From: Methanosarcina barkeri 3
GTDB lineage: Archaea > Halobacteriota > Methanosarcinia > Methanosarcinales > Methanosarcinaceae
Direction: 5' to 3'
Assembly (NCBI RefSeq): GCF_000970305.1
Contig: NZ_CP009517.1
Span: 4,340,001-4,404,000, forward strand
DNA length: 64,000 nt
Shown: positions 34,300 through 48,583 of the stretch, piece by piece
How positions within the stretch are numbered: position 1 is the stretch's first letter
Layout of the letters: each line of letters begins with the position of its first letter
Notes under the pieces: generated by a model
Seen by the model: the letters and a program-made list of their open reading frames with translations, nothing else
Database searches by the model: none
Told to the model about the DNA's origin: nothing
Position numbers and translations under genes: made by a program

Positions 34300-37239
34300 T
34301 TACTTGTACACTAAACTCAGTTTTGGTACCTGACTAGTGTTTCCACAGTCAGCACTATAGAAGGCGATATAGTTACCATTTTCGTTGCGGGCTTTTAGAA
34401 GAAAACCTGTGTTTTCGTACTTACCACTGACATATTCTTTTACGAGATCGGTTACATTGAGCTCGTAGTACCTGTTATCCGGCAAGCTACTGGCTTTCAG
34501 GGTTAATGTAGCATATGGAGTACTGCCCCGGAAGACACCATTTTTATCGTACCAGTCTCCTCCGGCATTATTCCATGCAATATTTGCATTCTTTTTATTC
34601 CAGCTCACATACTCAGGGTTCCAGGAAGCAGGCCTGTAAACCTCGATAACAGTATCATTTGGTCGTGTACTGGAAGGATAATACCAGAAAAGAGAAAGAG
34701 TTGCACTATTTACCTCTGTGCCACTGGTATACTCACTTAAGTTAAATGACATAACAGCCCTATACTTTCCAACATCACTTAGTTCTCCCACATCGATAAA
34801 TGATGTATCAGAATAGACTCCTTCAGGTGAGGTTTCACGCAGACGGTTGTCTTTTGCACCAGTAATAGTTGCATTTACAGTTACCCTTTTCTTAATATTA
34901 AGCTTTGGTACCTGGCTTGTATTTCCGCAGTCAGCACTGTAGAAAGCGACATAGTTATCATTTTCATTGCGGGCTTTTAGAAGGAAACCTGTGTTTTCGT
35001 ACTTACCACTGACATATTCTTTTACGAGATCGGTTACATTGAGCTCGTAGTACCTGTTATCCGGCAAGCTACTGGCTTTCAGGGTTAATGTAGCATATGG
35101 AGTACTGCCCCGGAAGACACCATTTTTATCGTACCAGTCTCCTCCGGCATTATTCCATGCAATATTTGCATTCTTTTTATTCCAGCTCACATACTCAGAA
35201 TTCCAGGAAACAGGCCTGTAAACCTCGATAACAGTATCATTTGGTCGTGTACTGGAAGGATAATACCAGAAAAGAGAAAGAGTTGCACTGCTGATTTCAG
35301 TAGTATTGGTGTATTCACTTACGTTAAACCATACAAGGTCTCTGTATCTGCCAACACTGCTCATTCCTCCTACATCAAGAAATGTTTTATCCGGAAAGAC
35401 ATCCTCAGGAGATGCTTCACGTATGCGGTTATTGTATATCTCACCAGAGAGATTCAAAATGACACTTATTTTTGCAACTTCAGAATCATTGAGCTTACCA
35501 TCACTCACTTTAAAAGATATCGTGTAAACACCTTCCTGATCATTTACCGGCCTCCAATTAAAAAGCCCTGAATTTCCGTCAAAACTTGAACCTGCAGGAA
35601 GGCCTGAAGCTGAGTATGTAAGGCTGTCTCCATCCTTATCAGAAGCTTTTACTAGAATACTCAGTTTCTCTCCAGCTTTTACCGTAACCGCAGAAATAGG
35701 ATTCATTATAGGAGCATGATTTACCTCAGAAACCCCAGAAAGAGATGCATAGATCGTGTTTCCATATCTTCCTATATTGATTCTGTTTCCATTATCTTCA
35801 GGCTCATTAGAATAGTTCGAAGATGCATATCCGGCATCAATACAAGGAGAGCTAACTTTGTCCTTAACCCAGGTTTTCCCGTTCCAGCGACCTGAGACCG
35901 ACTGAAGATGATAGTCATGGTTTTTCGGATCTGCAAAAAGAGGGTCTACATAGATATCAGTTGTCGATTTGCAGTTTTTATAGTTACCTGCCGAGTTATT
36001 GTAAAGGCAGTTATTCTCCAGCACAAAAGAGTGTGTTTGAGGTAGATAATTCATAATTCCATATCCGGTCCCACTCGGAGAATTTGTGCGTATCCTGGTA
36101 TTTACAATTATGTTGTTACGGACAATTGTTGTGAATCCATCACCTGCTGGTACATAGGTTGGAGAATAACTATTGATATACATGTTGGCGATTGCAGCGT
36201 GATATATTCCGTCAAAAACATTGTTTTCAATGACAGTATCCTCGAATCCACCTGTTATTATGCCACCTACCCAGGTAATGCTAGGATTAGTGCCAGTGTC
36301 ATAGAAAACATTGTGATGAATATAGACATTTTTCGCCTTGTCTCTAGTAGCAGAAGAGCTATCATAGTTAAAAAGCCAGATGCCAGGACAATAAGTATTA
36401 TGGATAGTGTTATTGTAAATCTCTACATCGTCCATAACACCTGCAGACTTTTCGATCTGAATGCCTGGACCGCCTGCACTCCAGTGGTAGAAAGAATCAA
36501 TTAAGTTGTCATGGAATTTTACGTGGTTTGAGTTCCAGATTCTAAGACCGCTGTTAGTCCTGCAGGTTATTGTGTTATTCCAGGCTTCAACGTTCTGACA
36601 ATCAATTGCGAACAGACCGTCGTGTCCAAGCTTGTAGATAGTATTGTTATAAAACTTGACATTTTCTCCATACTTTATCCTCAGCCCGTCTCCATGACCA
36701 TCGTGCATATACATATTGTATACGGTTACGTTTTTGCAGTAAAGAAAGTACATTATATTATAATATCCATCACCCTTAGCAAACTCGGTGTTACCGTCAT
36801 GGTTCACATTAACCTCAAAACCCCTTATTACAATATTATTATTCCCGGAATTGCTCATCTGCTTGATCAAAGGTTTCATTGGAACCCAGCCTGCATGATC
36901 AACAAGTTTGATAACAGCATTTGAATCCCCTTCAAGAATAGTATTGCTACCGATGAGAAGAGTATCATCAATAACATATGTAAAAGGACCTTTAAGGTGG
37001 ACAGTGGTATATCCGGAGTTATCGGCCACAAACTTAAGGGCCTGGTTTATCTGTACATGATCATCTTTTCCATCGCAGTTAAAATCTCCACTACCGTCTC
37101 CTGCTACATAAACAGTTGGTGCAGGACTCCGGCATAAAGCAGTAGGAACGTTTGCAAGAATAAGACAACTTACCAGGAAAAATATCCCTAATTCTCGTTT
37201 TAATACCGAGATTACCTGGGATTGATCACAACAGCGCAT
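34300..37239 (-). CDS. Disaggregatase-like secreted protein, full-length form
   Basis: About 979 residues from the ATG at 37239 (frame open to 37335). Order of parts: signal peptide (LGIFFLVSCLILANVPTALC); right-handed beta-helix with repeats such as MYMHDGHGDGLRI, YNNTIYKLGHDG and CRTNSGLRIWNSNH; a disaggregatase-associated segment ending SPCIDAG and NIGRYGNTIYAS; a cadherin/He_PIG-like Ig domain (YTISFKVSDGKLNDSE); and two copies of the DNRLRE/disaggregatase repeat (YYELNVTDLVKEYVSG). In Methanosarcina such proteins dissolve cell aggregates by cutting methanochondroitin. At the paralogs' ATG this gene has GTA, so its true start is unclear. It is downstream of two shorter copies. Confidence 0.88.
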   Translation of the reverse strand: MRCCDQSQVISVLKRELGIFFLVSCLILANVPTALCRSPAPTVYVAGDGSGDFNCDGKDDHVQINQALKFVADNSGYTTVHLKGPFTYVIDDTLLIGSNTILEGDSNAVIKLVDHAGWVPMKPLIKQMSNSGNNNIVIRGFEVNVNHDGNTEFAKGDGYYNIMYFLYCKNVTVYNMYMHDGHGDGLRIKYGENVKFYNNTIYKLGHDGLFAIDCQNVEAWNNTITCRTNSGLRIWNSNHVKFHDNLIDSFYHWSAGGPGIQIEKSAGVMDDVEIYNNTIHNTYCPGIWLFNYDSSSATRDKAKNVYIHHNVFYDTGTNPSITWVGGIITGGFEDTVIENNVFDGIYHAAIANMYINSYSPTYVPAGDGFTTIVRNNIIVNTRIRTNSPSGTGYGIMNYLPQTHSFVLENNCLYNNSAGNYKNCKSTTDIYVDPLFADPKNHDYHLQSVSGRWNGKTWVKDKVSSPCIDAGYASSNYSNEPEDNGNRINIGRYGNTIYASLSGVSEVNHAPIMNPISAVTVKAGEKLSILVKASDKDGDSLTYSASGLPAGSSFDGNSGLFNWRPVNDQEGVYTISFKVSDGKLNDSEVAKISVILNLSGEIYNNRIREASPEDVFPDKTFLDVGGMSSVGRYRDLVWFNVSEYTNTTEISSATLSLFWYYPSSTRPNDTVIEVYRPVSWNSEYVSWNKKNANIAWNNAGGDWYDKNGVFRGSTPYATLTLKASSLPDNRYYELNVTDLVKEYVSGKYENTGFLLKARNENDNYVAFYSADCGNTSQVPKLNIKKRVTVNATITGAKDNRLRETSPEGVYSDTSFIDVGELSDVGKYRAVMSFNLSEYTSGTEVNSATLSLFWYYPSSTRPNDTVIEVYRPASWNPEYVSWNKKNANIAWNNAGGDWYDKNGVFRGSTPYATLTLKASSLPDNRYYELNVTDLVKEYVSGKYENTGFLLKARNENGNYIAFYSADCGNTSQVPKLSLVYK
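34386..35288 (-). repeat. Two near-identical DNRLRE-domain repeats, 582-bp spacing
   Basis: Within the gene, about 320 bases at 34386-34706 recur at 34968-35288, offset by 582 bases (194 codons), with only a few differences. The flanking parts of each unit (for example NRLRETSPEGVYSDTSFIDV against NRIREASPEDVFPDKTFLDV) differ much more, which suggests recent gene conversion between the two domain copies. Confidence 0.85.
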
Positions 37240-37360
37240 ATTTTTGATTTTCATAGGTAGATATTCAAGTGGTGACGTATCAATATCCCCGTAAAATTTA
37301 TTATTATTTGCCAAAAGTTTACTTAAATCTAACATTTTATTTCTCGTAGACTAGACAGAA

Positions 37361-37620
37361 TTTTTCAGGTAGTATTCACTCTCCGACGTTAAAGGCTATA
37401 GAAAAGTTCTGGAGAGTTTATTCATGGCAAATGCTACTGAATCCAATAAAATGTAATAAATTAGTGACTCTGAATAAATCTCCCTGATATTCAGGCCAAT
37501 TCCTCGAACTCACCTAATTCCCCCCTGAAACATAGTGAATAAGCTGAGATTAGCCTTCAATTAAATTTCTATAGTCAACACTGTAAACTATATCTTGATG
37601 TTATAAAAGTATTTGTGCAA
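37361..37620 (-). promoter_or_regulatory. Leader and promoter region shared by two disaggregatase paralogs
   Basis: This block is similar over its length to 40491-40750, which lies upstream of the next paralog. Shared segments include CACTCTCCGAC, AAGGCTATAGAAA, AGGCCAAT, AGTGAATAA and TTAAATTTCTATAGTC. At the far end is a TATA-like box (TTATAAAAG, 37601-37609; minus-strand CTTTTATAA). This would give a conserved leader of a few hundred bases. No other gene is seen in 37336-38331. Confidence 0.65.
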
Positions 37621-38129
37621 ACTATATAAATATTTAAGGAGTTGCATAGTGTTAGAAAGAACAAATAAGTCTTTAAGATGAAAAAACCAAGATTAGAATA
37701 TGATTTATTAAAACTACTAAACAAATAAATTTGTTGAGTAAGATCAAGATTCTCGATTTTAATAGGATGCTCTCTTTTGATAATATAGTAACATAGCTTT
37801 GGCAAAGTCAACTTTTTGTTTTACCTTAAAAGAGAGAATTATACATTTTAAAAGGCAGTTTTAAATTGTCAAATATCAAAAATGTATAGATTAAGACTCC
37901 ATAAAGGATAGAAAATTGCCAGGAAATACCCGGAAAATAGAAAAGATTATAGAAGTAAGAAAGGAGTGTAGAAGTTAGGCATAACCCTCTAACATATCAT
38001 AAGAGTACTGTCAGATTATGTTACTCCAATATCATTCTTGCAATTCCGTTATAGCTACGTTTTCAAAATATTCCGACCAGTTTTCCCAAAAAGCGCTTGT
38101 TTTATCCAGTGCATTGGTCCCATAATTTC

Positions 38130-38217
38130 AATAAACCACGGATAAACACAGATGAACGCAGACAGTTCAATTTGTATTTATCCTTGTTCATCTGTAGTTT
38201 ATCGTGGGAAGTTTATT
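38130..38217. repeat. Imperfect inverted repeat of about 30-bp arms
   Basis: The left arm (38130-38160: AATAAACCACGGATAAACAC then AGATGAACGCA) pairs with the right arm (38185-38217: TGTTCATCTGTAGTTTATCG then TGGGAAGTTTATT). The loop is about 24 bases. The ACCACGGATAAACACAGATG sequence is of a type I associate with repeated intergenic elements of Methanosarcina genomes. It lies just after the 669-residue paralog's neighbour region, between genes. Confidence 0.7.
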
Positions 38218-38331
38218 GATCAGCGTCAATTTTAAGGTTCAGTCCTATTTCCATAATTTGGAACCGATGCACTAGAGCTAGTTTTACCACAAGCTGCGAG
38301 TTTTTTGAGTATACTAGAGCTTATTAAGCAT

Positions 38332-40341
38332 TTATAATTCCTCCAATCTAAGAAATAAATTATTCACATAAAGACCTTCAGGAGAAACTTTGTAAAGATA
38401 GCTGTCGCATATGCCAGAGAGATTCAAAGGAGCTTTTTCAACTACGCTTGAGAGATTCAAGGGAGTTTCTTCAATCACGGTTATTATTGCAACTTTAGAA
38501 TCACTAAACATACCATCACTTACTTCAAAAGATATAGTGTAGAGTCCTTCCTGTCCGTCTGTAGGTGCCCAGCTAAAGAACCCTCTTTCGTCAAAACTTG
38601 CACCTTCAGGAAGATCAGATGCTGAAAAGGTAAGGTTGCCTCCATTAATATCAGAAGCTTTCACTGTAAAGTTTAAAGTTTCTCCAATCTTCACTGTGGC
38701 ATCAGGAACAGATTCAATAACAGGTCCCTGTATGTCGACAGAGAGATCTTCTGAGTATGTGAAGTTATCTTCGTCCCCTTCAAGAACTTCCGCCGTGAAG
38801 TTAAGATCTTCGTCAGTCTCATTCGTAGCCTCGGAGATCGAACCTACTAATGAAGACTGCATAGTCTTTACTCGTGAACTCGGTGACAGAGACGCATATA
38901 TTGTATTTCCGTATCTTCCTATGTTGATCCTATTTCCATTGTTTTCAGGTTCTTTAGAATAATCCGAAGAAACGCACCCGGCATCAATACAGGGAGAACT
39001 CACTTTGTCTTTTACCCATTTTCCATTCCAGTGACCTGTAACCGACTGAAGGTGATAATCATGGCTTTTCTGGTTTACAAATAACGGATTTAAGTAGATG
39101 TCAGTTTTCGAGGTGCAGCCTTTATAATTGCCTGCTGCATTGTTGTAGAGGCAGTTATTTTCCAGCACAAAGTTATGGTTCTTGGAGAGGTAATTGATCA
39201 CTGCATACCCTGTTCCACTTGGGGACTTCGTACGTTTCTGGGTATTTACGATTATGTTGTTGCGGACAATTGTTGTGTACTTTGATGAGTAACTTGGAGA
39301 GTAAACTTCCGGATACATGTGAATAACAGCAGCATGGTATACACCGTCAAAAACATTATTTTCAATTAAAGTATCATGGAACCCACTAGCTACAATACCT
39401 CCGACCCAGGTAATGCTAGGATTGGTACCTGTACTATAGAAGACATTATGATGAATATGGACATTTTTTCCTTTATCTCTAGTAGCAGAAGAACTATCAT
39501 AGTTGAAAATCCAGATTCCAGGGCCATAAGTGTTAGATATAGTATTATCATAGATATCTATATCATCCATAATACCTGCAGATTTTTCGATTTGAACAGC
39601 TGATCCACCTGCACTCCAGTGGTAGAAAGAATCGATTACATTATCATGGAATTTTACATGGTTTGAGTTCCAGATTCTAAGACCGCTGTTAGTCCTGCAG
39701 GTTATTCTGTTGTTCCAGGCTTCAACGTTCTGACACTGAATTGCGAACAGACCGTCATGACCAAGCTTGTAGATCTTATTGTTATAAAATTGAATATTTT
39801 GACCGTATTTTATCCTCAGCCCGTCTCCGAGACTATCGTGCATATACATATTGTATACTTTTACGTTATTACAGTTAGTAAAGTAAATCACATTATAATA
39901 TCCATCACCCTTAGAAACTTTGGGATTACCGTCATGGTTTCCATTAACCTCGAAACCTCTTATTACAATGTTACTATTCCCGGAGCTGCTCATTTGCTGG
40001 ATCATAGGTTTCATTGTGACCCAACCTGCGTTATTAGCCAGTTTAATAACAGCATTTGAATCCCCTTCAAGAATAGTATTGCTGCCAATGAGAAGAGTAT
40101 CATCAATAACATACGTAAAAGGACCTTTAAGGTGGACAGTGGTATATTTGGAGTTACTTGCCACAAACTTAAGGGCCTGGTTTATCTGTACATGATCGTC
40201 TTTTCCATCGCATTTAAAATCTCCACTACCGTCTCCTGCTACATAAACAGTTGGTGCAGGACTCCGGCATAAAGCAGTAGGAACGTTTGCAAGAATAAGA
40301 CAACTTACCAGGAAAAATATCCCTAATTCTCTTTTTAGCAT
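38332..40341 (-). CDS. Disaggregatase-like secreted protein, truncated after Ig domain
   Basis: 669 residues. The N-terminus MLKRELGIFFLVSCLILANV is a signal peptide behind an AGGTGATATGA ribosome site. The beta-helix (MYMHDSLGDGLRI, YNNKIYKLGHDG, CRTNSGLRIWNSNH) and the SPCIDAG...NIGRYGNTIYAS segment match the full-length paralog. A short acidic linker and one He_PIG/cadherin-like domain (YTISFEVSDGMFSDS) follow. The DNRLRE repeat then starts (YLYKVSPEGLYVNNLFL) but stops after RLEEL, so about 350 residues of the paralog's C-terminus are missing. The truncated protein may still be secreted and active on its beta-helix alone. Confidence 0.85.
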   Translation of the reverse strand: MLKRELGIFFLVSCLILANVPTALCRSPAPTVYVAGDGSGDFKCDGKDDHVQINQALKFVASNSKYTTVHLKGPFTYVIDDTLLIGSNTILEGDSNAVIKLANNAGWVTMKPMIQQMSSSGNSNIVIRGFEVNGNHDGNPKVSKGDGYYNVIYFTNCNNVKVYNMYMHDSLGDGLRIKYGQNIQFYNNKIYKLGHDGLFAIQCQNVEAWNNRITCRTNSGLRIWNSNHVKFHDNVIDSFYHWSAGGSAVQIEKSAGIMDDIDIYDNTISNTYGPGIWIFNYDSSSATRDKGKNVHIHHNVFYSTGTNPSITWVGGIVASGFHDTLIENNVFDGVYHAAVIHMYPEVYSPSYSSKYTTIVRNNIIVNTQKRTKSPSGTGYAVINYLSKNHNFVLENNCLYNNAAGNYKGCTSKTDIYLNPLFVNQKSHDYHLQSVTGHWNGKWVKDKVSSPCIDAGCVSSDYSKEPENNGNRINIGRYGNTIYASLSPSSRVKTMQSSLVGSISEATNETDEDLNFTAEVLEGDEDNFTYSEDLSVDIQGPVIESVPDATVKIGETLNFTVKASDINGGNLTFSASDLPEGASFDERGFFSWAPTDGQEGLYTISFEVSDGMFSDSKVAIITVIEETPLNLSSVVEKAPLNLSGICDSYLYKVSPEGLYVNNLFLRLEEL

Positions 40342-40490
40342 TCATATCACCTGAAATTACTATAAAATTTTATTTACTAGTTTGCAGAGTAAGAACCGGG
40401 TAAAAAATGCTCATTAATCTACAGAAATTAAAATTATCTATGAAATAGTTAGACAACTTTCTTACTCAGTTCACTGAATGACAGATGGGA

Positions 40491-40750
40491 TTTTTCAAAT
40501 AGTGTCCACTCTCCGACATTCAAGGCTATAGAAATTTTCAGGAAAATTATTCATAGTGGAAGCTACTGAATCCTGTTAGAGAAACAAGTAAGAGATCCAG
40601 AAAAATCTCCATTTTTTTCAGGCCAATCTATCAAATTCACCCAAGTCCCCCCATGAAACAGAGTGAATAAACTGAGTGTTAACCATTAATTAAATTTCTA
40701 TAGTCTACTGTGTAAATTATATCGTAGTGTTATAAAAATATTTGTGTAGT
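40491..40750 (-). promoter_or_regulatory. Second copy of the disaggregatase leader/promoter region
   Basis: Similar to 37361-37620 with nearly the same length. The TATA-like box lies at 40729-40738 (plus-strand TTATAAAAAT). The gene start at 40341 implies a leader of roughly 350 bases. The third paralog (start 42884) lacks this block. Confidence 0.65.
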
Positions 40751-40927
40751 TTTTTTAAATTTTTATCCAGTGTTCAAAATTGTAAGAAAAATTAGAGAAT
40801 ATTTTGGAAAAAAAGAGAAATTAGAAACAGCTTTATTAAAATTTAGTGGTGGTCTCAAAAACCTAATACTTCCTATAATTGGAAGGGAAGGACAATTTCA
40901 ATATAATTGAGATGGAAATTATTCCAA

Positions 40928-41396: not shown

Positions 41397-42884
41397 TCAG
41401 TGTTTTGATTTCGATGCATAGATTGTGTTCCCATACCTTCCGATGTTGATCCTGTTTCCATTATCCTCAGATTCTTTGGAATAGTCAGAGGACGGATCGC
41501 CTGAATCAATACAAGGGGAACTCACTTTATATTTAACCCAGGTTTTCCCGTCCCAACTTCCACCTCTTGATTGAAGATGGTAATCATGGTTTACCTGGTC
41601 TACAAATAATGGGTTTAAGTAAATATCGGTTTTTGAGGTGCAGTCTTTATAGTTACCTGCTGAGTTCTTGTAAAGGCAGTTATATAGAGTTGTAAAGGAG
41701 TGTGTTTTAGGTAGATAGTTAATAATTCCATATCCTGTCCCACTTGGGGACTTTGTGCGCATCTTGGTATTCGTGATTATGTTGTTACGGACAATTGTTG
41801 TGAACCCGTCACCTTCTGGCACATAGCTTGGAGTGTAACTGTTGATATACATGTTCGCGATTGCAGCGTGATATACTCCGTCAAAGACATTATTTTCAAT
41901 TAAAGTATCCTCGAATCCACCTGTTATTATGCCACCTACCCAGGTAATGCTAGGATTAGTACCAGTGTCATAGAAAACATTGTGATTAATATCGACATTT
42001 TTTGCCTTGTCTCTGGTAGCAGAAGAGGTATCATAGTTAAAAAGCCACATTCCGGGTCCATAGGTGTCATAGATAATATTATCGTAGACCTCTACGTCAT
42101 CCATAGTGCCTGCAGACTTTTCGATCTGAATACCCGGCCCACCTGCACTCCAGTGGTAGAAAGAATCGATTACATTATCATGGAATTTTACATGGTTTGA
42201 GTTCCAGATTCTAAGACCGCTGTTAGTCCTGCAGGTTATTCTGTTGTTCCAGGCTTCAACGTTCTGACACTGAATTGCGAACAGACCGTCATGACCAAGC
42301 TTGTAGATCTTGTTATTATAAAACTTGATATTCTCTCCATACTTTATCCTCAGCCCGTCTCCATGACCATCGTGCATATACATATTGTATACGGTTACGT
42401 TCTTGCAGTAAAGAAAGTACATTATATTATAATATCCATCACCTTTAGCGAACTCGGTGTTACCGTCATGGTTTACATTAACCTCGAAACCTCTTATTAC
42501 AATGTTACTATTTCCGGAACTGCTCATCTGCTGGATCAAAGGTTTCATTGGAACCCAGCCTGCATGATCAACAAGTTTGATAACAGCATTTGAATCCCCT
42601 TCAAGAATAGTATTGCTGCCGATGAGAAGAGTATCGTTAATAACATATGTAAAAGGACCTTTAAGGTGGACAGTGGTGTATCCGGAGTTATCAGCCACAA
42701 ACTTAAGGGCCTGGTTTATCTGTACATGATCATCTTTTCCGTTGCAATTAAAATCTCCACTACCGTCGCCTGCAACATAAACAGTTGGTGCAGGACTCCG
42801 GCATAAAGCAGTAGGAACACTTGCAAGAATAAGGCAACTTACCAGGAAGAGGATTCCTACTTCTTGTTTTAACATCGATATCAT
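41397..42884 (-). CDS. Disaggregatase-like secreted protein, short form
   Basis: 495 residues: signal peptide (VGILFLVSCLILASVPTALC), beta-helix and the SPCIDSG...NIGRYGNTIYAS segment, ending there with SKSKH. There is no Ig or DNRLRE domain. Stretches of the helix match the full-length paralog (EFAKGDGYYNIMYFLYCKNV, MYMHDGHGDGLRI, GGIITGGFEDT); others match the 669-residue paralog (NKIYKLGHDGLFAIQCQNV, NRITC, KTDIYLNPLF). About 150 bases around 42160-42312 are identical to 39620-39777. It may be a minimal catalytic or binding unit. Start MISMLK; ATG at 42884 or 42875. Confidence 0.85.
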   Translation of the reverse strand: MISMLKQEVGILFLVSCLILASVPTALCRSPAPTVYVAGDGSGDFNCNGKDDHVQINQALKFVADNSGYTTVHLKGPFTYVINDTLLIGSNTILEGDSNAVIKLVDHAGWVPMKPLIQQMSSSGNSNIVIRGFEVNVNHDGNTEFAKGDGYYNIMYFLYCKNVTVYNMYMHDGHGDGLRIKYGENIKFYNNKIYKLGHDGLFAIQCQNVEAWNNRITCRTNSGLRIWNSNHVKFHDNVIDSFYHWSAGGPGIQIEKSAGTMDDVEVYDNIIYDTYGPGMWLFNYDTSSATRDKAKNVDINHNVFYDTGTNPSITWVGGIITGGFEDTLIENNVFDGVYHAAIANMYINSYTPSYVPEGDGFTTIVRNNIITNTKMRTKSPSGTGYGIINYLPKTHSFTTLYNCLYKNSAGNYKDCTSKTDIYLNPLFVDQVNHDYHLQSRGGSWDGKTWVKYKVSSPCIDSGDPSSDYSKESEDNGNRINIGRYGNTIYASKSKH

Positions 42885-46597: not shown

Positions 46598-48583
46598 TCA
46601 GGGATTATTTAATCCCTGATGCGGAATATAAATATTTACTGATGGATTTGAATAAATTTTGTCAAGGCCTTTGAGGTTGCTCTCTAGCTTAAGCTCGTTT
46701 TCGGGTATCCCCTGATAGAAATAGTTGGCAGTATCTTTCAGGGTGCTTTCCTCACTGCCAAAATATAATCCACTCCTGAGAAACTCCCTGGTTCTTAGAA
46801 CTACATAACCTTTGTACTCCGGGAGTTTATTTACATCACCGATTCTGTAATTATCGTAAGATGAGATATTCAACTCCGCGGATTTCGAAGGTATCAGCGG
46901 GACATAAAAGAATCTTGAAGCGTAATAATCGGTGTAAACAGACTTAGTTGAGGAATTGACAGGAACATACTTGAAAACATGATTAAACCCACTTAACTCT
47001 TCGGAAGTAAAGTATTCATGTTTTGCTTCTTGACCAAGAAAACTCGAATCTGAAATACTGTAGACCGAAGAAACTAAAATAAAAATAGAGAACAATAAGG
47101 TCACTAATAGAGCGGAGTTCGATTTCTTAGAATATTTAATTATATAATTCCAGAATATGTACAATCCGTATCCCATTATGAAAGCCATAAAGGGACTGAC
47201 GAAAAGCATAAATCGATCAACTCTAAAGAGGACTTTGAACTGCCAGATAGTATTGAGGGGATTGGGAATATAAAATATAAGAGTTAACAGAGCAAATAAC
47301 CCTATAACGGCAGCATAATTCTTCTTGTAATTTTTCAGAAGAAAACCTATTCCTATCAAGGTAAAGAATAAAAATACCGATTTATCCAGAAGTCCTATTA
47401 AGTCAATCAAGCTTTCCTGAAGAACTTCTGAACCTCCGGCAGTTAGAACTACAGAATCCAAAAACTGACTCTGCAAACGGGGAGCCAGGCTCCTCTGTAC
47501 AAACACATACGCTACGAAGAACCAGTAAGCAGAAAAAATAACATTAAGCAGTATAAAGAAGGGCTTGCTGATATAACTATTATTTCCTATTACATATTCC
47601 GATGCAAGAAGAATAATTAGCAATAGAACAAGCTGTGGAAGGGAAACATTGTGAACTAAAGTTAAAAAAACTGCAACAATTACCGAGAGAGTTTTTAAGG
47701 ATAGTTTATCCTTTTTGAAATTGACACTGTAAATCAGGTACAATAATACAACGAACATTATGAATGCCATTGTACGGGTGATTACGTTTGTACCATAATA
47801 AAGCACGGTAGAACTTGCGGAGAACAGTACGCACGAGAGGAGTGAAATCTGCCTGTTGTTTGTTATATAGTTAATAAGGTAATAAAGGAAAATAATAGTT
47901 ATTGCATAGACAGGTGCAGTTACCAGAAAAAGTGAATTCTTTACGCTTATTTTCAAGATCTCAGCAGCTTCTGCAATAAACACGTGATAAAGAGGGAAGT
48001 AAGCGTAATCGCTTAAGGAGGTAGGAATTGTTTTCCCGGTCAGTGCAGTGACTTCCGAAATAAAAATATGGGGCAGAATATCTGTGGTACCGACATAGAA
48101 ATCATAATTTAAAGTCACACTGAATATTAAATTAAGCGCGATTAAGACAGATTCAGCCAGAACAAGGGAAGGGTTTATGTCTTCAGAGAAAATTTGGAAG
48201 AATACAGACAGATAAAGTCCTAAAATAAAAAAGAAATAGTATAGAGGTCTGCTTCCTGGAGACAGCATAAGTACAACTAGGGAACCAATATAAAATGTCC
48301 CAAAAAGGTACGTAAGGGACTTTGTACTCAATGATGGGAAGATATCTATATCATGTAAACTTACATCTTTTTTGTAAATAAATAATATGAAAAGACAGGA
48401 TAGTATTGCAGGTACTCCTGTAAACAGCCCCCGAAGTGCATAACCGAACTTTTCGGTTGCAAACATCCATAAGAACGCGAATATTACTGCGAAAATGATA
48501 GCTAACGGAAACAGAAAAGAAATTAACCTCATTAAACGGTTATTATCTAATCCGGGTCCTGCTTCTTTGTTTAATCCGAACAT
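46598..48583 (-). CDS. Large polytopic membrane protein, GT-C-like
   Basis: 661 residues with about 13-14 spans and a C-terminal soluble tail of about 130 residues. The first large loop contains FYVGTTDILPHIFISEVTAL followed by YAYFPLYHVFIAEAAEI. This equals the MGYDAYFHASMA and YFYYPLFHIFISII region of the protein at 18444, so they are the same family despite low overall similarity. A GT-C transferase, possibly adding the first or last sugar outside the membrane, is the likeliest role. Start ATG follows GGAGATAGT. Confidence 0.65.
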   Translation of the reverse strand: MFGLNKEAGPGLDNNRLMRLISFLFPLAIIFAVIFAFLWMFATEKFGYALRGLFTGVPAILSCLFILFIYKKDVSLHDIDIFPSLSTKSLTYLFGTFYIGSLVVLMLSPGSRPLYYFFFILGLYLSVFFQIFSEDINPSLVLAESVLIALNLIFSVTLNYDFYVGTTDILPHIFISEVTALTGKTIPTSLSDYAYFPLYHVFIAEAAEILKISVKNSLFLVTAPVYAITIIFLYYLINYITNNRQISLLSCVLFSASSTVLYYGTNVITRTMAFIMFVVLLYLIYSVNFKKDKLSLKTLSVIVAVFLTLVHNVSLPQLVLLLIILLASEYVIGNNSYISKPFFILLNVIFSAYWFFVAYVFVQRSLAPRLQSQFLDSVVLTAGGSEVLQESLIDLIGLLDKSVFLFFTLIGIGFLLKNYKKNYAAVIGLFALLTLIFYIPNPLNTIWQFKVLFRVDRFMLFVSPFMAFIMGYGLYIFWNYIIKYSKKSNSALLVTLLFSIFILVSSVYSISDSSFLGQEAKHEYFTSEELSGFNHVFKYVPVNSSTKSVYTDYYASRFFYVPLIPSKSAELNISSYDNYRIGDVNKLPEYKGYVVLRTREFLRSGLYFGSEESTLKDTANYFYQGIPENELKLESNLKGLDKIYSNPSVNIYIPHQGLNNP

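What the first reader, a model, noticed from the sequence alone, without database searches (positions are those of the whole stretch)
37361..40750. Conserved long leader upstream of two paralogs
About 260 bases before each of two disaggregatase genes (37361-37620 and 40491-40750) stay similar, with shared motifs CACTCTCCGAC, AAGGCTATAGAAA and CTATAGTC and a TATA-like box at the distal end. The conserved part seems non-coding and would give leaders of several hundred bases, so it could be a regulatory RNA or operator cluster. Recent duplication alone might also explain it.
Basis: partly seen in the sequence, partly recalled or inferred. Interest (0 to 1): 0.55.

Follow-up and report, generated by a model that had tools for sequence, protein, structure and literature searches.

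The report
Conserved disaggregatase mRNA leader, Methanosarcina
Two neighbouring genes for enzymes thought to dissolve the cell-clump matrix in a Methanosarcina archaeon share an old, strongly conserved stretch of promoter and long mRNA leader that recurs before the same kind of gene across the genus, so it is probably a shared control element, though how it works is not yet shown.

Summary
Confirmed and extended. Blocks 37353-37640 and 40490-40765 are 77% identical; both genes are on the minus strand, so the blocks are upstream. Conservation starts at a TATA box and runs ~250 nt into the predicted transcript. Recent duplication does not explain it: cores match orthologs at 83-96%, each other at 79%, with 49% in flanking DNA and 70% at four-fold sites. 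A sequence profile finds the module in 26 of 30 Methanosarcina genomes and weakly in 4 of 4 genomes of another genus, nearly always before secreted disaggregatase-type genes. Five genomes carry two modules in series. No Rfam match. The core is more self-complementary than shuffled alignments or coding blocks, but equally so on the antisense strand; the predicted stems passed no tree-based covariation test, and no RNA-strand signature appeared. Verdict: a genus-wide cis-regulatory promoter/leader module. RNA-level action is the likelier reading but unproven; a new member of a known kind, the long regulatory leaders of Methanosarcina.

The parts
37601..37608 (-). TATA box (TTTTATAA) of copy 1
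   Evidence: position; upstream edge of the conserved block in 36 aligned copies
37560..37576 (-). most conserved element GACTATAGAAATTTAAT, at the predicted transcription start of copy 1
   Evidence: 0.84 mean pairwise identity window; only two exact matches of ACTATAGAAATTTAATT in the genome, both here; start inferred from TATA spacing
37389..37578 (-). core leader of copy 1 (span of model R2)
   Evidence: 202.2 bits (this copy is in the training set); conserved across the genus
37394..37404 (-). downstream arm TTTCTATAGCC, complementary to the start element (possible closing stem P1 or inverted DNA site), copy 1
37357..37387 (-). GTCGGAGAGTG motif block at the 3' end of the conserved stretch, copy 1
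   Evidence: position; identity 0.69-0.73
34300..37335 (-). disaggregatase-type gene 1 (beta-helix, Disaggr_assoc, two Disaggr_repeat stretches); true start codon uncertain
40730..40737 (-). TATA box (TTTTATAA) of copy 2
40689..40705 (-). GACTATAGAAATTTAAT element at the predicted transcription start, copy 2
40519..40707 (-). core leader of copy 2 (span of model R2)
   Evidence: 185.2 bits (in the training set)
40524..40534 (-). downstream arm TTTCTATAGCC, copy 2
40486..40517 (-). GTCGGAGAGTG motif block, copy 2
40346..40351 (-). Shine-Dalgarno-like GGTGAT before the ATG of gene 2
   Evidence: sequence
38332..40341 (-). disaggregatase-type gene 2 (beta-helix, Disaggr_assoc; no Disaggr_repeat domain found)
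41397..42884 (-). third paralog; no recognisable leader copy upstream

Best explanation
The two blocks are copies of one cis-regulatory module: a core promoter followed by a long 5' leader shared by a subset of the secreted disaggregatase-type genes of Methanosarcina. Transcription is inferred to start at or near GACTATAG (about 37576 and 40705), giving leaders of about 240-340 nt for gene 1 (its start codon is uncertain) and about 365 nt for gene 2. The first ~220 transcribed bases are kept by selection. Most likely they act in the mRNA: the leader folds, with its 5' end able to pair to a site ~170-180 nt downstream and with internal hairpins, and is read by a protein or small molecule that sets how much of the enzyme is made, so that several paralogs respond together when aggregates should disperse. 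Shown: position, conservation, distribution, gene association, excess self-complementarity. Inferred: transcription start, RNA-level action, the enzymes' activity on the matrix, the trigger and the output.
For: Profile of 36 copies: 0.06-0.48 in the 11 windows upstream, 0.60-0.84 across the TATA box and start, 0.59-0.73 for the next ~200 nt, then 0.24-0.55. In 15 parsed pairs the core exceeds four-fold sites in 13 and the upstream flank in 14: own copy 1 vs G078 0.91 against 0.75 and 0.75; own copy 2 vs G077 0.83 against 0.68 and 0.52; own copy 1 vs copy 2 0.79 against 0.70 and 0.49. Module in 26 of 30 Methanosarcina genomes, 67 matches at E <= 0.001 (29 copies trained the model), and in 4 of 4 genomes of another genus, E 1e-4 to 8e-7. 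Downstream genes, judged by the printed N-termini: 42 of 43 readable loci disaggregatase-type; 16 of 23, plus 5 from the other genus (Pfam run on two of these). TATA plus start motif at fixed spacing over 84,980 species genomes: 14 matches, 11 in Methanosarcina contigs, 10 of these before a disaggregatase-type gene. Five genomes have two modules in series; the downstream one does not match the promoter part. Consensus folding energy against column shuffles: 36 copies z -5.1, 17 type-I -5.4, 9 type-II -5.2; coding blocks of the same loci z -0.6 to +1.1. Precedent for regulatory long leaders in Methanosarcina: PMC3600222, passages.
Against: No transcript data. The stems of the predicted fold pass no tree-based test (best helix E = 0.2; best pair E = 2). 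The antisense alignment is at least as self-complementary (z -8.0 against -5.6 sense). Strand-neutral counts show no preference for G-U over A-C changes, which RNA helices should show. The 5' arm of the closing stem is intact where the 3' arm has decayed (L042, L045, L050), and in L087 the reverse. In 37 held-out rows the type-I structure is paired in 64% of cells (slid registers 31-48%) but does not exceed shuffles as a whole (201 of 1000 reach it); only two hairpins do (17 and 5 of 500). The shuffles do not keep dinucleotides, and the coding controls are more conserved. Genes and leaders were copied together, so the gene association is partly descent. Four of 30 genomes have the gene family but no module. 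In L001/L029 and L039/L090 the core is less conserved than four-fold sites.
Confidence: 0.57

Rival explanations
1. DNA-level control: an extended promoter with protein-binding sites at and downstream of the transcription start. The two inverted CTATAG elements (+1 and about +175) are paired operator sites, and the conserved blocks between them are further sites.
For: The GACTATAGAAATTTAATT element sits where a repressor site overlapping the start would; it stays intact in copies where its partner decays; inverted repeats equally strong on both strands and without G-U bias fit DNA dyads.
Against: Conservation spans ~220 bp downstream of the start with almost nothing upstream, unusual for operators (inference). 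Second copies without the promoter part persist further into the transcribed region. The start motif shows no excess elsewhere in this genome: two exact matches, 90 in all with up to 3 mismatches against 105 for the reversed control (where the relaxed matches lie was not examined).
Confidence: 0.27
2. Recent tandem duplication: the leaders are similar only because gene and leader were copied together not long ago.
For: The genes are tandem paralogs and a 300-nt N-terminal coding stretch is 90% identical. Leaders are exchanged between paralogs in some genomes: L035/L086 core 0.94 while four-fold sites are 0.64, and in G078 the paralogs L030/L062 (0.88) are closer than the between-species pair L061/L062 (0.82).
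Against: Each window copy is closer to its counterpart in other species (0.83-0.96) than to its neighbour (0.79); the sequence just outside the core is unalignable between the two copies (0.49 and 0.44).
Confidence: 0.04
3. Coding: the conserved stretch is an upstream open reading frame or the N-terminus of the gene.
For: After the core, GTCGGAGAGTGGATACTATTTG reads (M)SESGYYL, in frame with the gene in several relatives; its sixth codon is a leucine codon in 29 of 36 copies.
Against: No excess change at third codon positions (0.24, 0.20, 0.23); frames are closed and most indels are not in threes in the 190-nt core. At most the last ~30 nt and the stretch beyond could be coding in some lineages.
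Confidence: 0.04
4. The promoter and core encode a separate small RNA that merely lies upstream of the gene.
For: Own promoter and a ~220-nt conserved transcribed unit; M. mazei has many small RNAs (PMC3600222 passages).
Against: I saw no T-run shared after the core in the printed alignments (not tested systematically). The distance from the module's start to the signal-peptide codons is 424-455 nt in 16 of 17 parsed rows.
Confidence: 0.06

Closest known systems
Long regulatory 5' leaders of Methanosarcina (CODH/ACS and methanol methyltransferase genes; PMC3600222, passages)
   Same: Archaeal mRNAs of the same genus with unusually long 5' leaders that control expression.
   Different: Different genes; the profile finds only the two disaggregatase leaders in the window's genome at E <= 0.1; here the leader sequence is shared by a paralog family across species. 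The known leaders themselves were not compared directly.
Riboswitch-type cis-regulatory RNAs (including tandem arrangements)
   Same: Noncoding, predicted to be transcribed, upstream of related genes, predicted to fold, sometimes in series.
   Different: No significant covariation of the predicted stems, no known ligand, no Rfam match.
Archaeal operator sites overlapping the transcription start (recalled, no call)
   Same: Inverted sequence element at the predicted start site.
   Different: Far larger conserved span, almost all of it downstream of the start.

Membership tests
Any Rfam 15 family | score at or above the family's gathering cut-off | tested here: not met
   0 matches in the window and 0 in L002, L043, L155; the five below-cut-off matches do not overlap the leaders
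Riboswitch / structured cis-regulatory RNA | conserved secondary structure supported by compensatory changes | tested here: inconclusive
   Alignment folds far better than shuffles, but tree-based and strand tests do not support the stems. On a 24-row subset: 12 double-change cells vs 4.5 shuffled and covariation score 0.174 vs 0.152 (0 of 500 as high for both), 7 double-change pairs vs 3.8 (22 of 500), further pair types 36 vs 35.4 (237 of 500); the tool warns that relatedness alone can beat such shuffles
Riboswitch / structured cis-regulatory RNA | binds a ligand and switches expression | not testable with these tools
   needs biochemistry
Long regulatory 5' leader (Methanosarcina kind) | transcription starts several hundred bases before the start codon | not testable with these tools
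   inferred from TATA box position; no transcript data held
Long regulatory 5' leader (Methanosarcina kind) | leader conserved beyond neutral expectation | tested here: met
   core above four-fold sites in 13 of 15 parsed pairs (exceptions L001/L029, L039/L090)
Operator cluster of a DNA-binding regulator | same site at other promoters of the regulon in the genome | tested here: inconclusive
   exact motif only at these two genes; relaxed matches no more than the control, but their places were not examined
Recent duplication only | copies within the genome closer to each other than to orthologs | tested here: not met
   window pair 0.79, orthologs 0.83-0.96

The most novel reading that the evidence does not exclude
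A new class of archaeal leader RNA, found in Methanosarcina and one other genus of its family, that senses a signal of aggregate life (for example a methanochondroitin breakdown sugar, salt or growth phase) and switches a family of matrix lyases together. It may choose between two alternative folds in which the AUUGGCC and GGGAGAUUU strands swap partners, and some genes may stack two sensors in series. It would be an RNA switch between multicellular and single-cell life in an archaeon.
Probability: 0.17. Interest if true: 0.85.

Novelty: new member of a known kind. Interest (0 to 1): 0.47.

Why it matters
Disaggregatase lets Methanosarcina mazei leave its polysaccharide-bound clumps and live as single cells; outside M. 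mazei the activity has not been shown, only related domains (PMC12369344, passages). A shared conserved leader before these genes gives a concrete, testable handle on how an archaeon might control that switch, and would add to the few archaeal cis-regulatory leaders known (the last point recalled).

Tried and rejected
Rfam searches: nothing relevant. Unbiased pair covariation with a tree-based null (best pair E = 2), helix event scores on 36 and 62 copies and window co-evolution: nothing for the candidate stems. Two results there I set aside: one register (columns 95-99 with 184-188, and its 7-bp extension) reached E = 0.00 and 0.03 against 40 simulations, but only 65-67% of its cells pair and it has 20-32 breaking against 2 compensating events; the strongest window pairs (z -5.8, t -3.1) are not stems of the fold and were not followed. 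Strand-specific G-U versus A-C test: one search left too few pairs, one search was negative. A covariance model with the type-I structure (R2) scored many held-out copies higher than the sequence-only model R3, e.g. 108.5 vs 91.9 bits for L090, but others lower (L045 52.4 vs 61.9; L153 second module 43.5 vs 52.3). The models carry different information content (0.59 vs 0.38 bits per position), so I did not use this as evidence. uORF / N-terminal extension: no codon-position signal. General operator motif: no excess elsewhere. Literature: six searches listed 8 of 8, 8 of 8, 12 of 508, 15 of 16, 10 of 17 and 10 of 41 papers; no listed title or shown abstract start describes this leader. The library holds only open-licence papers. 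Within PMC12369344 a term search found no 'UTR' or 'leader'. The paper that identified the M. mazei disaggregatase gene is not held, and I did not compare the window's genes with that gene.

Rows dropped before counts: weak hits L051-L057, L079, L098, the N-containing L088 and contig-end L047, L093 were left out of the main alignments (still had L047 and L093); L064, L091, L092, L095-L097 also out of A2 (36 rows). A5 used 24 rows (type I and near relatives, with L064 and L088 brought back). One search used 62 of the 64 rows of A4, 60, 55. In one search, 6 of 21 pairs failed to parse. Three loci (L149, L155, L170) overlap loci.
Full report
What was claimed.

The observation. It holds. The three motifs occur exactly twice each on the + strand of the window, at the stated places, and TTATAAAA sits at the distal end of each block. 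A genome-wide search with block 1 finds block 2 at 77% identity and E = 1e-49; the remaining 26 matches have E of 0.0135 or more. Both genes read on the minus strand, so the blocks are upstream of them. Pfam places gene 1 (34300-37335) and gene 2 (38332-40341) in the disaggregatase-related families with a right-handed beta helix; so does a third paralog (41397-42884), which has no recognisable leader. Nearby genes code for polysaccharide building: a UTP-glucose-1-phosphate uridylyltransferase, a sugar epimerase/dehydratase, a flippase-like protein and glycosyltransferases; one more (46598-48583) matched no family.

Which organism. Contig lengths of several relatives equal those of records titled Methanosarcina (for example 47,673 bases, M. 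spelaei MC-15), so I call the window's genus Methanosarcina by inference.

Extent. In an alignment of 36 copies, mean pairwise identity per 20 nt is 0.06-0.48 in the eleven windows furthest upstream, 0.60 and 0.78 at the TATA box, 0.84 over GACTATAGAAATTTAATT, 0.59-0.73 for the next 200 nt and 0.24-0.55 after the GGAGAGTGG block. With normal archaeal spacing from the TATA box (recalled), transcription would start at or next to GACTATAG. The conserved block would then be a core promoter plus the first ~220 bases of the transcript. No sense frame is open in any copy and most indels are not multiples of three, so the core is not coding.

Not simply a recent duplication. Own copy 1 and copy 2 are 0.79 identical in the core, 0.49 just upstream, 0.44 between core and gene, and 0.70 at four-fold sites. 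Copy 1 matches its counterparts at 0.84-0.91 and copy 2 at 0.83-0.96. Over 15 parsed pairs the core exceeds four-fold sites in 13 and the upstream flank in 14; the exceptions are L001/L029 (core 0.88, upstream 0.93, four-fold 0.92) and L039/L090 (core 0.76, four-fold 0.91). Between orthologs the stretch from core to gene is about as conserved as the core (for example 0.84 against 0.83 for L002/L061); between paralogs it is mostly not (0.44-0.57, but 0.93 in L035/L086). Leaders are exchanged in places: L035/L086 have core 0.94 but four-fold 0.64, and the G078 paralogs L030/L062 (0.88) are closer than L061/L062 of two species (0.82).

Distribution. Block 1 as a DNA query matches 30 of 111 genomes of the family at E <= 0.01, several of them weakly; block 2 matches 24 of 30 in the genus. 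A sequence-only profile (R1) matches 26 of 30 Methanosarcina genomes with 67 matches at E <= 0.001 (29 copies trained it) and, more weakly, all four held genomes of a second genus (E 1e-4 to 8e-7; E-values are for one genome). Scattered weaker matches in other genera (E 0.001-0.1) were not followed. All 30 Methanosarcina genomes carry the PF08480 gene family; the window's genome has 9 such genes but only 2 modules, and four genomes (two of them incomplete) have the genes without a module, so the module marks a subset. Of 45 loci above noise, 43 had a readable downstream gene, and by the printed N-termini 42 were disaggregatase-type; the other (L076) was a different beta-helix protein. Of 23 loci, three of which overlap, 16 precede disaggregatase-type genes and 5 (second genus) precede secreted proteins, two of which I tested and which have a beta helix plus the disaggregatase repeat domain. 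L156 has no such gene, and L159 only a signal-peptide-like start without a Pfam match. A spaced pattern (TATA box, 23-27 bases, ACTATAGAAATTTA) over 84,980 species genomes gave 14 matches: 11 on ten Methanosarcina contigs (one titled only Euryarchaeota archaeon), of which 10 precede a disaggregatase-type gene and one lies at a contig end, and 3 in unrelated bacteria (judged by the printed protein ends).

Modules in series. In G077, G078, G094, G099 and G101 two modules lie in series before one gene. In all five the downstream one does not match the promoter and first transcribed bases. The upstream one includes the TATA part in G078 and G094 and is only partly matched in the other three. Duplication of the transcribed part fits a function in the leader but does not prove one.

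Is it a structured RNA? For: the core alignment folds to a consensus energy far below column shuffles (z -5.1 for 36 copies; -5.4 for 17 type-I and -5.2 for 9 type-II copies alone; with the promoter included -4.4, -3.7 and -2.8), while coding blocks of the same loci are at z -0.6 to +1.1. The shuffles do not keep dinucleotides and the coding blocks are more conserved, so this is not a matched control. The type-I fold is a closing stem (CUAUAGAAA with UUUCUAUAG), a long-range stem GGCUAAU/AUUGGCC around a hairpin UUCAC/GUGAA, and GGAGA..UUAUUC/GAAUAA..UCUCC around CUGAAUCC/GGAUUCAG. On 24 rows 92% of cells pair, with more double-change cells than shuffles (12 vs 4.5, 0 of 500), but only a mild excess of double-change pairs (7 vs 3.8, 22 of 500) and none of pair types (237 of 500); the tool warns that relatedness can produce such excesses. 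Single copies are mildly more stable than shuffles on the sense strand (mean z -1.53 over 55 copies) and slightly less so on the other (-1.11). Against: no stem of the fold stands out in tree-aware tests on 36 or 62 copies (one unrelated, poorly paired register did) or in the window co-evolution test. The closing stem's arms decay independently (L042, L045, L050 on one side, L087 on the other). In 37 held-out copies the type-I structure does not exceed shuffles as a whole (201 of 1000), though two hairpins do (17 and 5 of 500). A strand-neutral comparison shows no excess of G-U over A-C changes, and the antisense alignment has an even stronger z (-8.0 against -5.6). The self-complementarity is thus real, but it could be RNA structure or DNA dyads. 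The data hold about 4 (36 copies) to 8 (62 copies) changes per column, so power is limited.

Reading. The safest statement is that this is a cis-regulatory promoter-plus-leader module under selection. I put about 0.57 on action through the transcribed leader, 0.27 on DNA-level control, and the rest on other readings. Disaggregatase breaks methanochondroitin and turns aggregates into single cells in M. mazei; elsewhere in the genus only related domains are known (PMC12369344, passages), so calling the window's genes matrix lyases is inference. M. mazei has long leaders, and leaders of two other gene sets in the genus are regulatory (PMC3600222, passages). A shared leader would let several such enzymes be raised together at dispersal; this last step is inference too.

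Novelty. No Rfam family matches, and the papers listed by six searches, four of them capped lists, show nothing on this leader. Long regulatory leaders in Methanosarcina are known, so this is a new member of a known kind unless the RNA-switch reading is proven.

Noticed in passing
L149, L151, L152, L153, L155 (G094, G099, G101, G077, G078): Two leader modules in series before one gene; the downstream one does not match the TATA box and start element.
   Followed up: partly
L035 and L086 (genome G086); L030 and L062 (G078): Leaders of paralogs unusually alike (0.94 with four-fold sites at 0.64; 0.88): a sign of gene conversion of the leader.
   Followed up: partly
window 38332-40341: Gene 2 has no Disaggr_repeat domain; it ends in a short stub that resembles the start of one.
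   Followed up: no
window 34300-37335 and relatives L029, L030, L032, L033: An open N-terminal extension runs ahead of the signal peptide, with no ATG at the usual start in four of these five rows, so the true start codon is unclear.
   Followed up: partly
window 38136-38207: Inverted repeat (CCACGGATAAACACAGATGAAC and partner, 28 nt apart) in the gap between genes 1 and 2.
   Followed up: no
L076 (genome G083, C1:917047-917303): The same leader precedes a different secreted beta-helix protein with no Disaggr_assoc match (the gene runs off the locus).
   Followed up: partly
L042-L050 (type-II clade): Around the G-run several of these copies form a different and longer hairpin (UUUCCAAU...AUUGGGAA) than type I, so the fold may have shifted register between clades.
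   Followed up: partly
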